NCBI GenBank assembly: GCA_031213475.1
Contig: JARUPZ010000002.1
Coordinates: 17,096,079 to 17,160,078, forward strand
Reading direction: 5' to 3'
DNA length: 64,000 bases
DNA from: Nereocystis luetkeana
Lineage: Eukaryota > Sar > Phaeophyceae > Laminariales > Laminariaceae
Part shown: one piece after another, positions 2,166-63,027 of the stretch
How positions within the stretch are numbered: position 1 is the first letter of the stretch
Layout of the letters: each line of letters opens with the position of its first letter
Program-made: the position numbers and the translations under genes
Notes under the pieces: generated by a model
Databases searched by the model: none
What the model was told of the DNA's origin: nothing
The model's input: only the letters and a program-made list of their open reading frames with translations

Positions 2166-2208
2166 ACCAGGTACCTGGTATACAAAGCAGCAGCATCAGC
2201 AGCACCTA

Positions 2209-2330
2209 TTATTAGGGGGGACCATAGTTATTACCGGTAGGACTTGTGGTATCCATAAAAACCTACCTGGTACCTGGTATATATTTAACCTTTTTTACTG
2301 TTATAACAATATTCGGTTCCATTAACTATG
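2209..2330. mobile_element. MITE-1 copy 2, 3' end replaced by (TG)n
   Basis: The left terminus ATTAGGGGGGACCATAGTTA and the MITE-1 interior are recognisable, but the right terminal repeat breaks off at AACTATG into a TG dinucleotide array (2329-2351). Compared with the copy at 58933 it has extra TA-flanked insertions: TACCGGTA at 2232-2239, and two stacked units TACCTGGTACCTGGTA at 2264-2279 in place of a single TA. Confidence 0.8.
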
Positions 2331-3040
2331 TGTGTGTGTGTGTGTGTGTGTTCTTCACATTAAACCGTTCTTTCTACCCGTCGACATCCAGCACAACCAG
2401 TGTCCGTGCCGATTCTTCCATCCTAGAAGAGATACAAGTTCTGTGGTCACAAAGCTACGCCACAGAGATACTACGTTGCCACGTGTGCAGTGTGAACTGC
2501 AGTGGGCAATGCAAAGCCATGTCATCATACTAGATACGACAGGCACGACATACGCAATCTATGAAATAGTGAAACGAAAAGAAACAATCAAAGAGAAAAC
2601 AAAACAAGGTAGACAAGTCGAAAAAGAAAAAGAAGAAAAATGAAAGCAAAATCTAAGAGAAACAATCTGTCGTGCCCCCCCCCCCGCAGGCGAGGTGGCC
2701 TACACTTGAAAAAGAACGAGCTGGAAAAAAGAAGAAATAACAAAAGACACCACTGCTTGTGAACAGAGTAAGACAAAGAACCAAGGAGAAAGTAACAAGG
2801 AAAAATAACAAAGGGGAAATAACAGGCAGACCAAAGCCCAAAGCACCTTCTAGGTGGCGGCAGCAGCTTGTGGTACGAGTAGTATAGCCAGGTTCTCCCT
2901 GCTAATCCGCCTGGTACCTTGCTACCCAGACTGCCGTCTCCGCCCTGCGTTCGTCAACTATGCCCAGCCCCTTGGCGTCAGACAATACGAGCCGAGCAGA
3001 GCAGGTTCGTCTTCCAACCACGCCACACGGCTCCTTGAGT
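2331..3040. repeat. Segment of a long inverted duplication (left arm)
   Basis: The sequence from the (TG)n tract to about 3024 reappears inverted at 11335-11828 and 13066-13262. The part at 2857-2960 resembles the 3' end of the neighbouring LINE (3210-3300), so the block is probably an old LINE fragment with its flank. A C10 tract is at 2677-2686. No protein is claimed from it. Confidence 0.65.
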
Positions 3041-3115
3041 ACGGCTTATCAATCAGAAAAGGAAGAGGAAGAGAAAAAATGAAATGAAAATCACGGAGAG
3101 TCAGCGCAAGAGAGA

Positions 3116-3150
3116 AAAAAAAAAAAAAAAAAAAAAAAAAAAAAAAAAAA
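3116..3150. repeat. A35 homopolymer
   Basis: Thirty-five consecutive A on the plus strand, between two LINE-derived blocks. In the direction of the minus-strand LINE it would be a T tract downstream of the stop codon, so it is not that element's own poly(A) tail. Confidence 0.9.
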
Positions 3151-3232
3151 CTAAAAGAGAAGACAAGGGAAGACCACGTTCGAGCCAGCTGCACCAGTTG
3201 GTAGCACTAGTAGTATGGTCATATTCTACTTC

Positions 3233-5290
3233 CTAGTCGACTTGGTGCCTTGCTACCCTGTCTGCCATCTCCTTCCTACTTTCGTCTACCGCCGTTTCCC
3301 TTCTACCCCTCCTGTTCCCCCCCCTCTCCGCATTCACTCGGTCGGGCTTTATGCCACTTCTCCTGTTGCCCCCTCCCCCCCCGTTCCTTTGGGCACCATC
3401 CACGGCGGATGCGCGGCGCTGTCTACTCATCTCAGCCTCAGCCTCGTGCCACCTCACCATGAACCGTTCGGCTGCTTCAAGGATCCCCCGGTACCACTTC
3501 CCCGCCTTTTTGGCTGCTGTGGACCACAACGCGGTCTCAACTCCAAACACCAAGGGGGCAACTTCCGTTGACCCTTCGGTGGCTCGGAACTCCCTAAGGT
3601 CTTCGACTATGCATCTATGCCAAGTCTTACACTGTCCGCCTGGTCTCGGGTTCTCCCCACCAGCTATCGTCCCGAGCATTACCCGATTGGGTAATCGCTC
3701 CTTGCTTTGCCGTGCCACGCCCCCCGCAAAGAAGAGCCGCCGTTTGCGAATGGTCGTTTCGATGCTCTCGCAACGTGTCATCTTGAGGGCCTTCGCGTAC
3801 GAGAGGGTGGCATGGTCAGTACGAAGTCGGCGCTGGAAGCCAATGACTCGCAACAGGACTTGGTGGTGAGCCGTTCGAAGCTTGGCAAAGTGTTCCGCTC
3901 TGAGGGTCCACGTCACACACCCGTACAGCAGGGTCTCAATCACCTCGGCCTTCAGCATTCGGACTTTAAGGCTAAGGGGGGCGGTCGTCCTATCATACAA
4001 CTCCGGGCCGAACCGTTTGAAGCATGCTCGCATGAGGCGGATCCGTCGGTCGATTTCGAGCGAGAGGTCAGCGTTTTCGTGGATAACGCCGCCTAGGTAT
4101 AAGAACTGGGTCGTCTGCTTATACCTCTGACCTGCCGCTTCGATGACGAGCGGTGGTGCGAGGGTTGTCCGGTCTGGTGTTTGTAGGACCATTGTCTCAG
4201 TCTTCTTTTCCGACACCGTGAGGCCTGCTGCTTCGAAGACAGTCACGATGACTGTCATCATTTTTGCGAGCCCTTCAGCCGACTTCGAGACAATTCCTGC
4301 ATCGTCGGCGTACAACATGCCCCATACAGACCTTCGCACGCACGCCAATGGCTCCTCCTTCCCTGTTCGAACTACTCCAGCTTCCAAGAGTTGGACCAAA
4401 TCCCTTACAATGGCTTCGTCTTGGCTGAAGCGTACTAGTACGACGTGTAACGCAGCAGCGAAGAACACGTTGAACAGTAACGGTGACAGTACACAGCCTT
4501 GCCGCAGCCCCTGCGTGACATCAAACCATTCCGAGAGCTCGCCGTCATCAGTACGCACGCGAGCCCGCATGCCATCGTGGAAATTACGGATAATTCTCAG
4601 CATCTTGGTTGGTACGCCAAAGCGTGTGAGTACCTTCCATAACAGCTCTCGGTCGACAGAGTCGTACGCTTTCTGCAGATCGATGAAGCACACGTATAAG
4701 GGGATTTTCCTCTGTCGTCCGAGCTCTTGCAGCCGGCGCACGACGAACAACATATCAATCGTTGATCGTGCGGGGCGGAAGCCGCACTGTTCCTCGGGGA
4801 GTAGTTCCTCGGTCTCGCAGTAGTTGCTGAGGCGGGACGCGACGATTTTCAACAACACTTTGCCTGCGTGGGCAACAAGCGAGATCCCTCTATAGTTGTT
4901 GCAGTCAGTTCGATCCTTCTTTTTGTGAAGGACCTTGATGATCGCATCTTTCCATTGCTGAGGGACTTCTCCTGTTAACCAAACATTGACAAGGATGTTG
5001 TGAAAGCGCTGGGCGAATGCCGGGTGGTCGATTTTTAGGAGTTCGACCGGGAGACCATCTGGCCCGACAGCTTTCCAATTCGACATCCCCTTCAGTGCTT
5101 CGGTCATCTCGTCTATGGATGGTTCATCTTCAAGCGACAGTTTAGGCGGTCGCGGTGGCAAGAGGTCGATGATCGTGGGATCGAGTTTCAGCGACTTCGT
5201 GTTCAAGAGTTTGTGATAAAACCCCGCCCATATAATAGTATGCCAGAACTGCTGTGCTTTGTGCTGCTGCTGTCGACATGTCAACATCAC
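3233..5290 (-). CDS. Non-LTR retrotransposon (LINE) reverse transcriptase, long open frame, 5' truncated
   Basis: A 685-residue open frame. In a LINE this enzyme copies the element's RNA at a nicked chromosomal site. The RT fingers ([20 protein letters not shown]) lie near residues 116-134, palm motif A ([13 protein letters not shown]) at 201-213, motif B ([16 protein letters not shown]) near 260-275, and the catalytic box [10 protein letters not shown] at 327-335, so both YADD aspartates are present. The thumb and C-terminal region has the [11 protein letters not shown] signature near 454-463, common in RTE/CR1-like LINEs, followed by a basic Arg/Gly-rich tail. No upstream endonuclease domain is present. 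The first 25 or so residues look like flanking DNA read in frame, so the element probably begins near 5215. The 2-kb frame without a stop or frameshift suggests a young insertion. The exact clade is not determined. Confidence 0.93.
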
Positions 5291-61852: not shown

Positions 61853-61979
61853 GTACTGTAGTGGTAAAACAAAGCGGAAACACGGCAATTACCCCCATTA
61901 CACGTAGAGGACTGCTTTTTTACCCAAAATAGCCAAAGTACACCCCTCGCACCACGTTTTACTGCTATTCAGTGCATAC

Positions 61980-62062
61980 TACTGCTGCTACAATACTACT
62001 ACTACCACTACTACTACTACTACTACTACTACTACTACTACTACTACTAATACTACTACTAT
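61980..62062. repeat. (CTA)n microsatellite
   Basis: About 80 bp of CTA/ACT units, just left of MITE-1 copy 12a. Confidence 0.85.
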
Positions 62063-62086
62063 GTATATTGCTACGGCACAACCAGC

Positions 62087-62195
62087 TATTCCGGGGGGGC
62101 ATAGTAAATAAGACCAAATATTGTTAGGAGAAATAGGTAAATATATAGGTTTTTGTGTGTACGGTGGGTCCTATTTACTATGGACCCCCGTAATA
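62087..62195. mobile_element. MITE-1 copy 12a
   Basis: TATTCCGGGGGGGCATAGTA to TATGGACCCCCGTAATA. Confidence 0.85.
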
Positions 62196-62745
62196 CCAAC
62201 ATGTATGTCCCTGACACTGTAGAGCTGTAGACTAGGCGATTGTCGGGGGGGGGCTACTCATCATGTTGTGTATGCAATGGGCGTATTTTTTTTCGAGCTG
62301 TAAGCATTAAGAGAGAGGACAATATGACCACCATAGATCGTCACATATCCCTACAACGCCCGGTCGACTTAGAGACAAAATCTCTTCGGCGGAGGCGCGG
62401 GCGGGGGGGCCGGGGGGGGGGGGTACTCGGCGGAGGGGGGGGAAGGAGCAAGGACAAGCCGGGGAGGATCTCGAGACATGTTGAAAGCAGACGTGAAAAA
62501 ACGGGCATGCACCGAACCACCAAATTTTGAAAGGTGAGAGATACGTAGAACATGTTTACGCCCGGCTATACACCTCAGAAGAACTTGTTGACACAATTCT
62601 TCCTATCATCGTTTTTTTTTTTTAGTCTCGTCGGCAAGACGCCGGTTCAAATTTCGCTTCGAGAATTTTATATTGTTGTTTTACATTTTCGCTTGAGTTT
62701 TTCAACGTAATACGTAGCATAATAACAGCCTTCGATACTCTGTGG
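62196..62745. other. Intergenic DNA with SINE-C-like box B fragment
   Basis: G-rich runs are at 62400-62445. Near 62630-62665, GTCGGCAAGACGCCGGTTCA followed by AATTTCGCTTCGAG resembles the box B region of SINE-C. No gene seen. Confidence 0.4.
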
Positions 62746-62867
62746 TATTACGGGGGGTCATATTAAATACCTGGTAGGACCTACCAGGTACGGTACACAC
62801 AAAAACCTACTTATTTCGCTATTTTACTAACAATATTTGGTCCTACTTGCTATAGTCCCCCGTAATA
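62746..62867. mobile_element. MITE-1 copy 12b with two 7-bp insertions
   Basis: TATTACGGGGGGTCATATTA to TATAGTCCCCCGTAATA. Against copy 7, two TA dinucleotides have become TACCTGGTA (62768-62776) and TACCAGGTA (62782-62790); otherwise the alignment there is collinear. Confidence 0.9.
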
Positions 62868-63027
62868 GATTTTTTTTTTGTAGTAGATCGTGGTATAATA
62901 GCTTTCCGACCTGCGATTTGCAGGTATATGATATACCTGGTATATATATATAAAACAACAGCTGCGAGATCGAGGATTTCGTCGACGCTCATCTTTGCAA
63001 GCTGTGTGTGATACTTCGATCGCGTGT

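What the first reader, a model, noticed from the sequence alone, without database searches (positions are those of the whole stretch)
2166..62943. TACCWGGTA is massively over-represented and behaves like a transposon excision footprint
I counted about 40 TACCAGGTA or TACCTGGTA words. Uniform composition predicts 64000 x 2/4^9, about 0.5. The word is TA-CCWGG-TA: palindromic, TA at both ends, with only an A/T ambiguity in the centre. Comparing repeat copies shows that TA became TACCWGGTA by a 7-bp gain. In MITE-1 copy 12b (62768 and 62782) this happened twice against copy 7, and at 2264 two units were gained; the LINE-X copy at 49272 has it where relatives do not. A central A/T mismatch resolved either way is what Sleeping Beauty-type elements leave (TAC(A/T)GTA). 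A TA-targeting element with ends starting CCWGG, or CCW with trimmed joining, would give this word. TACCGGTA (for example 2232) and TACCATGGTA (53609, 53752) could be sibling joints. No intact source element is in the window.
Basis: partly seen in the sequence, partly recalled or inferred. Interest (0 to 1): 0.92.

Follow-up and report, generated by a model that had tools for sequence, protein, structure and literature searches.

The report
Jumping-DNA excision scars, TACCWGGTA
A nine-letter palindrome strewn through this algal-looking genome is most likely the scar left each time a jumping piece of DNA cut itself out at a TA, so the genome keeps a countable record of old jumps.

Summary
The window has 40 TACCWGGTA words (18 A, 22 T; 0.6-2 expected); its 465-Mb eukaryotic genome has 182,395 sites, reversed control 1,744.

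Words are 7-bp gains at TA. In 282 kb, 8 of 111 word arrays have a homologous copy with bare TA and 0 share the word; 897 control sites give 2 and 75 (strict test). At one TA inside a 110-bp MITE, 871 places carry 3-16 extra bases; the 100 listed show 37 states, 78 with a CCWGG unit, others TACCGGTA, TACCATGGTA, stacks and a second scar family, TACTTCGAAGTA. Variants point to ends reading CCAG...CTGG: TACCAGGGTA 93, TACCTGGGTA 7 of 100 listed; TACCATGGTA 34, TACCTAGGTA 5 of 49 sites. Flanks show a palindromic AT-rich target.

Best reading: excision scars of a TA-targeting cut-and-paste transposon with CCAG(G) ends. It works like Tc1/mariner, though the usual 5-nt remnant exceeds the 2-4 bp normally quoted. 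No source element was found.

The parts
2165..2180 (.). double word TACCAGGTACCTGGTA (mixed A/T)
   Evidence: exact match; context
2207..2330 (+). MITE-1 copy carrying TACCGGTA (2232) and a double word (2264)
   Evidence: compared with other copies
2232..2239 (.). sibling joint TACCGGTA, 6-bp gain at TA against other MITE-1 copies
   Evidence: read by eye
2264..2279 (.). double word TACCTGGTACCTGGTA; 15 homologous matches have bare TA
5333..5348 (.). double word (A,A)
5959..5967 (.). TACCTGGTA
6411..6426 (.). double word (T,A)
10945..10953 (.). TACCTGGTA
13300..13308 (.). TACCTGGTA
22233..22248 (.). double word (T,T)
27808..27816 (.). TACCTGGTA
31595..31603 (.). TACCAGGTA
32409..32431 (.). triple word (A,A,A)
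36086..36094 (.). TACCTGGTA
40596..40604 (.). TACCTGGTA
40827..40835 (.). TACCAGGTA, followed by a decayed second unit
40882..40890 (.). TACCAGGTA
41354..41362 (.). TACCTGGTA
42280..42288 (.). TACCAGGTA directly after a TACCAG, i.e. TACCAGTACCAGGTA
42516..42531 (.). double word (A,A)
46745..46753 (.). TACCTGGTA
49230..49238 (.). TACCTGGTA in the repeat 49048-49697
49272..49280 (.). TACCAGGTA; bare TA in one homologous copy only in the looser test
   Evidence: not
52175..52190 (.). double word (T,T)
52791..52799 (.). TACCAGGTA
53680..53695 (.). double word (T,A)
53773..53780 (.). sibling joint TACCAGTA at the hot TA of MITE-1 copy 53721-53837
58135..58143 (.). TACCTGGTA
60477..60485 (.). TACCAGGTA followed by CTGGTA (TACCAGGTACTGGTA) in repeat 60176-60538
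61065..61073 (.). TACCTGGTA in repeat 60779-61120; 4 homologous matches have bare TA
62746..62867 (+). MITE-1 copy with two separate words
62768..62776 (.). TACCTGGTA; 5 homologous matches have bare TA in the strict test, 14 in the looser
62782..62790 (.). TACCAGGTA; 1 homologous match has bare TA in the strict test, 12 in the looser
62934..62942 (.). TACCTGGTA

Best explanation
TACCWGGTA is the usual excision scar of a TA-targeting, cut-and-paste DNA transposon (or closely related set) whose two ends are inverted and read 5'-CCAG(G)...CTGG-3'. The element inserts at a TA inside an AT-rich palindromic target and duplicates the TA. On leaving, it leaves short flaps of its ends (at least CCA, perhaps CCAGG) on both flanks. 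End joining then pairs CC with GG around an A-A mismatch, or joins trimmed flaps, giving TACC(A/T)GGTA most often and TACCGGTA, TACCAGTA, TACCATGGTA, TACCAGGGTA and TACCAGGGGTA less often. Either TA of a scar can be hit again, which stacks scars at 7-bp spacing. Shown: private 7-bp gains at TA, the target signature, the series of joints at one site, the A/T asymmetry of the variants, a second scar family at the same TA. Inferred: the transposon itself, the flap length, mismatch repair as the source of W, re-insertion as the cause of stacking.
For: Gains at TA: strict test 8 of 111 word arrays with a bare-TA homolog, 0 of 111 sharing the word; controls 2 and 75 of 897, Fisher p 9e-10. Looser first test 13 and 0 of 111 against 34 and 82 of 897. 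Target: W A n n A T R before the TA and its mirror after it, in the flanks of 113 arrays and in 177 flanks unlike a decayed word; a palindromic AT target is reported for the Tc1-like ZB and for Sleeping Beauty (PMC7913693, passages). One MITE-1 TA: 871 places with 3-16 extra bases, control 0; 37 states among the 100 listed, 78 with a CCWGG unit. Joints expected of CCAG ends beat their A/T mirrors: TACCAGGGTA 93 vs TACCTGGGTA 7 of 100 listed (86 vs 7 with one 8-copy tandem array counted once), TACCATGGTA 34 vs TACCTAGGTA 5 of 49 sites, TACCAGTA+complement 38 vs TACCTGTA+complement 18, expected 10.6 and 13.6. Other scars at the same TA (TACTTCGAAGTA, TACTCCGGAGTA) and a mixed stack TACCAGGTACGAAGTA. 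Mixed A/T doubles, 4 of 13. Three-nucleotide flaps joined by NHEJ are the described source of Sleeping Beauty scars (PMC7827188, passages).
Against: No source element: 577 pairs with CCWGG ends in 282 kb match beyond the first 7 nt only where both are stacked or decayed words, in the 8 best rows seen; none at 40 fetched sites; no shared transposon end among the 100 listed of 357 sites. DDE_3 gave 0 matches; Transposase_1 gave 0 with a silent control; DDE_1 gave 28 but the best one's flanks, 2.3 kb, show no such ends and the other 27 were not examined. Scars usually quoted are 0-4 bp. At the MITE-1 site A outnumbers T 41 to 15 (p 7e-4), which free mismatch repair does not predict; inherited copies may explain it, and then not all MITE-1 cases are separate events. 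The joints TACCTAGGTA and TACCAAGGTA, not predicted, occur once each in the 100 and in 5 and 10 (AA/TT) of 49 sites. A wider test had 10 arrays mostly empty, 6 mostly shared, 1 tie; all 6 shared lie in L082 and L083, stretches picked for many words.
Confidence: 0.86

Rival explanations
1. A 7-bp minisatellite-like unit that spreads by slippage or patchy repair, with no transposon.
For: Units stack at 7-bp spacing: 14 of 113 arrays. Some doubles are uniform (TT 5, AA 4).
Against: 99 of 113 arrays are single units, and words are gained at a bare TA, which slippage cannot start. Flanks carry a target signature out to 7 bp. Mixed doubles exist. Variant joints are strongly A-biased.
Confidence: 0.04
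2. A selected binding or signal motif (protein site, replication or chromatin mark) kept by selection.
For: It is palindromic, short and spread through the genome.
Against: Words arise as private insertions of exactly 7 bp at TA rather than by point change. Indel variants with a fixed asymmetry are common. One-mismatch forms are also in excess, 138 vs 64 expected.
Confidence: 0.03
3. A site-specific recombinase or a cutting enzyme, not a DDE transposase, leaves the word: two flanking CCWGG sites recombine and one remains, or a break at TA receives added bases.
For: CCWGG is a palindrome with a 5-base core. No element ends have been seen.
Against: Clean site-specific recombination would not give the variant joints TACCGGTA, TACCATGGTA, TACCAGGGTA, nor the second scar family at the same TA. 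Added bases would not be expected to obey the CCAG/CTGG rule.
Confidence: 0.05
4. The word rides on one amplified repeat (MITE-1 or another) and spread by copying.
For: 3,283 places with AAAAACCTACCWGG; about 32 of the 40 fetched look like MITE-1 (read). A:T of 41:15 there suggests some inheritance.
Against: In the random set only 3 of 117 words lie in MITE-1 copies found by BLAST, and 0 of 111 arrays were shared with a homologous copy.
Confidence: 0.02

Closest known systems
Sleeping Beauty / Tc1-like excision scars (word TAC(A/T)GTA recalled; mechanism in PMC7827188, passages)
   Same: TA on both sides, palindrome with an A/T centre, short remnant of the transposon ends joined by end joining, AT-rich palindromic target
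   Different: Remnant between the TAs is usually 5 nt (CCWGG) rather than 3; ends read CCAG(G); very many scars and no known element
mariner family (Mos1-type ends begin CCAGG or TCAGG: recalled, from no call)
   Same: TA target, staggered cut, ends beginning CCAGG
   Different: A one-sided scar TACCATA (recalled as Mos1-like) is not enriched (23 seen, 20.2 expected; 1 of 100 at the MITE-1 site, plus one TATACCATA); Transposase_1 search found nothing but its control was silent
pogo-type DDE_1 elements, e.g. Passer (scars 0-4 bp; PMC9976928, passages)
   Same: Tc1/mariner-like cut-and-paste; DDE_1 domains occur in this genome (28 matches)
   Different: No CCAG ends near the one match examined; shorter scars
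Stowaway MITE scars in grasses (PMC1925063, passages)
   Same: Two-sided remnants (2-4 bp on one side, 1-2 bp on the other), several distinct scars at one TA, and re-insertion into the TA of an older scar
   Different: One gene intron there; here the same scar at about 182,000 sites

Membership tests
Tc1/mariner superfamily | insertion at TA with TA duplication | tested here: met
   Bare TA in homologous copies against TA...TA around the remnant: 8 of 111 arrays, none shared; met for the scar, not seen for an element
Tc1/mariner superfamily | AT-rich palindromic target around the TA | tested here: met
   Flank logos
Tc1/mariner superfamily | scar of 2-4 bp from a 2-3 nt stagger | tested here: inconclusive
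   Dominant remnant is 5 nt between the TAs: 182,395 sites, 56 of 100 listed insertions at one site; this is above the 2-4 bp quoted in PMC7913693, but grass Stowaway remnants can reach a similar total
Tc1/mariner superfamily | terminal inverted repeats on a source element | tested here: inconclusive
   No CCWGG-ended pair beyond stacked or decayed words among the best of 577 in 282 kb; whole genome not scanned for ends
Tc1/mariner superfamily | DDE/D transposase of a Tc1/mariner/pogo type | tested here: inconclusive
   PF13358 0, PF01359 0 with silent control, PF03184 28, none tied to the scar
piggyBac | TTAA target and seamless excision | tested here: not met
   Target is TA in mostly non-TTAA contexts and a remnant is left; the piggyBac feature is from the abstract of PMC7351741 in the listing
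Minisatellite / slippage array | growth by copying of an adjacent unit | tested here: not met
   99 of 113 arrays are single units; single words gained at bare TA

The most novel reading that the evidence does not exclude
A still unnamed TA-specific transposase lineage with an unusually long (about 5-nt, CCAGG) stagger has been cutting itself out of this genome almost without pause, so that its scars outnumber any surviving copies by orders of magnitude and are the commonest 9-base words of the window outside simple repeats. The scar population would be a near-complete dated log of excision events and of how this lineage mends double-strand breaks. (Lowered from 0.40 to 0.35 on checking, because the passages of PMC1925063 already report two-sided remnants of similar size.)
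Probability: 0.35. Interest if true: 0.86.

Novelty: new variant of a known kind. Interest (0 to 1): 0.73.

Why it matters
Excision scars are normally read one locus at a time. Here one scar type occurs at about 182,000 sites of a 465-Mb genome, so excision, target choice and end-joining outcome could be measured from sequence alone, over a span of time (one-mismatch forms in excess at about half the exact count suggest production over roughly 15% divergence under a constant-rate sketch). It also explains a class of 4-9 bp indels between repeat copies, warns against reading such words as regulatory motifs, and raises the question of how an element can have been this busy and yet be so rare.

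Tried and rejected
Word as part of one long repeat: rejected. Slippage unit: rejected as the starter of single words. CCTGG ends: rejected by the asymmetry of variants. One-sided scar TACCATA/TATGGTA: not enriched (23 and 22 seen, 20.2 and 21.8 expected). Source elements: inverted pairs TACC...GGTA (40 best rows seen), any TA-anchored inverted pair (60 of 273 rows and a tally of starts seen), and 577 CCWGG pairs (8 best rows seen) in 282 kb gave MITE-1, other repeats and pairs of stacked or decayed words, no CCWGG-ended element. Large indels between repeat copies: MITE-1 insertions and others, no CCWGG element. Transposase families. Ten of 134 long ORFs of the sample: no Pfam domain. Viral contigs with a double word: 9 stretches, not followed up. 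Paper searches: the word itself (217 papers hold at least one form, the 15 listed are unrelated by title), scars and brown algae.

Not done: genome-wide counts of TACTYCGRAGTA, TACCWGTA and the bare MITE-1 site, ends of the other 27 DDE_1 matches, any comparison with a second species or strain.

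Full report
What was claimed.

The count. The window holds 18 TACCAGGTA and 22 TACCTGGTA; Markov expectations are 0.3-1.1 for each. It lies in contig C2 of a 465-Mb, 1,987-contig genome that holds 182,395 word sites; the pattern read backwards gives 1,744. 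Twenty 10-kb stretches at fixed places on 20 contigs hold 77 words, 385 per Mb, so the word is genome-wide. In 282 kb (window, those 20 stretches, and six 3-kb loci that one search had cut around words) CCAGG/CCTGG is by far the commonest filling of TA-N5-TA: 128, next 21. A reverse transcriptase ORF (3233-5389, minus; RVT_1) has, among the 120 hits listed, one that bears an organism name, Ectocarpus, at 49% identity (closer hits are unnamed). Genome size and composition would suit a brown alga; this is inference.

Insertion, not mutation. I joined the flanks of each of 111 word arrays around one TA and searched the 282-kb sample for homologous copies. First test: 13 of 111 have a copy with bare TA and 0 a copy sharing the word; 897 other TA-N5-TA sites gave 34 and 82, 13 of them in both. 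Some of those cases were weak, so I repeated it, asking for at least 12 of 16 matching bases next to the TA and no partial word in the copy: 8 of 111 empty, 0 shared, against 2 and 75 of 897, Fisher p 9e-10. A third version (121 arrays from 314 kb, search set also holding selected MITE-1 loci, shared copies allowed 2 mismatches) gave 10 mostly empty, 6 mostly shared and 1 tie, against 18, 137 and 1 for 949 controls, p 1e-5; the six shared cases lie in two 5-kb stretches (L082, L083) that I had chosen for their many words and that look locally duplicated. So words are mostly younger than the repeats that carry them.

Target. Flanks of 113 arrays show A or T at -7, A at -6, T at -2, A or G at -1 before the TA, mirrored after it. 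The signal persists in 177 flanks that do not resemble a decayed word. A palindromic AT target is reported for the Tc1-like element ZB and for Sleeping Beauty (PMC7913693, passages).

One site, many outcomes. A 110-bp near-palindromic repeat (MITE-1, about a dozen copies in the window) has a TA in AAAAACC-TA-TATATTTAACC. AAAAACCTACCWGG occurs 1,642 + 1,641 times (control 1 + 2). Of the 100 places listed I fetched 40, besides the four loci cut itself: 34 of 40 carry the word, 3 carry TACCAGGGTA and 3 something else; about 32 look like MITE-1; none shows a transposon end. Asking for 3-16 extra bases at the otherwise exact site gave 459 + 412 places (control 0). The 100 listed fall into 37 states: TACCAGGTA 41, TACCTGGTA 15, TACCGGTA 4, doubles, mixed doubles, words at a neighbouring TA, TACTGGTA, TACCATGGTA, TACCAGGGTA, single cases of TACCATA, TACCTAGGTA and TACCAAGGTA, and a second family TACTTCGAAGTA (2, plus one extended), TACTCCGGAGTA, TACTCCGAGTA; 78 of 100 contain a CCWGG unit. 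A further query for AAAAACCTACCAG with the word excluded gave 174 + 183 places (control 4 + 5); the 100 listed include TACCAGTA, TACCAGGGTA, TACCAGGGGTA and TACCAGTGGTA at the same TA and no shared transposon end, although seven share one local continuation on contig C4. That pattern would have missed any end with T two bases after CCAG, as the word itself has.

What the variants say. If both ends read CCAG(G)...CTGG, joints are a short prefix of CCAGG plus a short suffix of CCTGG. That predicts TACCAGGGTA over TACCTGGGTA, TACCATGGTA over TACCTAGGTA, TACCAGTA over TACCTGTA. Seen: TACCWGGGTA has 13,000 sites (control 771) and the 100 listed are 93 A to 7 T (eight of the A form one array with mostly 528-bp steps). 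TACCWWGGTA has 5,159 sites (control 1,529) and the 49 listed with letters are 34 AT, 5 TA, 10 AA/TT; one more listed site has no letters. In 301.5 kb TACCAGTA with its complement has 38 against 10.6 expected, TACCTGTA with its complement 18 against 13.6. Slippage or random indels inside the word would not be expected to prefer A over T. The central W of the main product then follows either from an A-A mismatch between paired flaps or from loss of one base at a CCA/TGG joint. For Sleeping Beauty and mariner, 3-nt 3' flaps and end joining are described (PMC7827188, passages). The dominance of the 5-nt product favours pairing of CC with GG, i.e. flaps of about 5 nt, but this is inference.

Stacking. 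14 of 113 arrays are doubles or triples, while the TAs of words are roughly 240 of about 16,200 TAs in the sample (my reckoning from the 32,426 flanks), so stacking is well above random choice of TA. Four of 13 doubles mix A and T, and stacks of unlike scars occur (TACCAGGTACGAAGTA; TACCGGTACCTGGTA). Re-use of a scar's TA is documented at one grass locus (PMC1925063, passages). Local copying may add to it.

Age. Exact words 134 (3.0 expected), one-mismatch words 138 (64 expected), two-mismatch words 617 (652 expected) in 301.5 kb. Under constant production an excess ratio of about 0.55 corresponds to roughly 15% divergence; the expectations include some of the words themselves, so this is only a sketch.

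The missing element. Of 577 TA-anchored pairs with CCWGG at both ends in 282 kb, the 8 that match best beyond the first 7 nt are stacked or decayed words. DDE_3: 0 matches, its control rang in 3 of 14 genomes. Transposase_1: 0, but its control found nothing anywhere, so it says little. DDE_1: 28 matches; the flanks of the best (2.3 kb in all) have no inverted pair better than 13 of 16 and no TACCAG, though one word lies in the upstream flank; it may be a gene with introns. Either copies are few, or extinct here, or carried by a transposase outside these models.

Results that do not fit neatly. A exceeds T 41 to 15 at the MITE-1 site (p 7e-4), so some of those copies probably inherited the word, and MITE-1 counts are not counts of events. 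TACCATGGTA at 53751 is only a 3-bp gain. The unpredicted TACCTAGGTA and TACCAAGGTA do occur. Scars quoted for Tc1/mariner and pogo elements are 0-4 bp, but two-sided Stowaway remnants can reach a similar total; with no element in hand I do not file this under that superfamily, though it works like it.

Verdict. Excision scars of a TA-targeting cut-and-paste element with CCAG(G) ends, 0.86. The kind is known; the scale and the near absence of a source are new as far as my searches show. On checking I lowered interest from 0.74 to 0.73 and the novel case from 0.40 to 0.35 because of the Stowaway remnants.

Noticed in passing
window 380-489, 13390-13505, 18664-18779, 53721-53837, 56725-56835, 58932-59041, 59988-60096, 61738-61853, 62087-62195, 62746-62867: MITE-1: a 110-bp near-palindromic repeat, ends TATTACGGGGGACC...GGTCCCCCGTAATA, seen as a clean insertion in another repeat of the sample (L012); its ends differ from the scar's.
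   Followed up: partly
G000 MITE-1 sites listed, e.g. C1:19194160, C3:7540887, C3:14161145: A second palindromic scar family at the same TA, TACTTCGAAGTA / TACTCCGGAGTA, pointing to another TA element; 2 TACTTCGAAGTA in 301.5 kb.
   Followed up: partly
window 60477-60491 and 61065-61073: Two copies of one repeat carry different words or joints at or next to the same TA (TACCAGGTACTGGTA against TACCTGGTA), while other copies have bare TA.
   Followed up: partly
282-kb sample: TATTAATA is a strongly over-represented 8-base palindrome (83) and TACWGTA is also high (111), possibly further scars or ends of other elements.
   Followed up: no
L037:408-1432: A 1,025-bp insertion with inverted ends (TTAATAGAGTGTTTG...CAAACACTCTAA) inside a repeat, next to TA.
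   Followed up: no
G000:C1:8320630-8321181: Strongest of 28 DDE_1 matches, open frame, no inverted ends nearby: possibly a domesticated pogo-type gene.
   Followed up: partly
G000:C1:1304145-1308362: TACCAGGGTA recurs at mostly 528-bp steps: a tandem array.
   Followed up: no
window 23732-24365, 50983-51650, 59244-59795, 34245-34574: Long (TGTA)n, (ACT)n and (GTA)n microsatellites and a 130-bp unit repeated 2.5 times.
   Followed up: no
window 3233-5389 (-), 42773-43489 (+): LINE-type reverse transcriptase ORF (RVT_1, E 8e-36) and an NLI-interacting-factor-like phosphatase exon.
   Followed up: no
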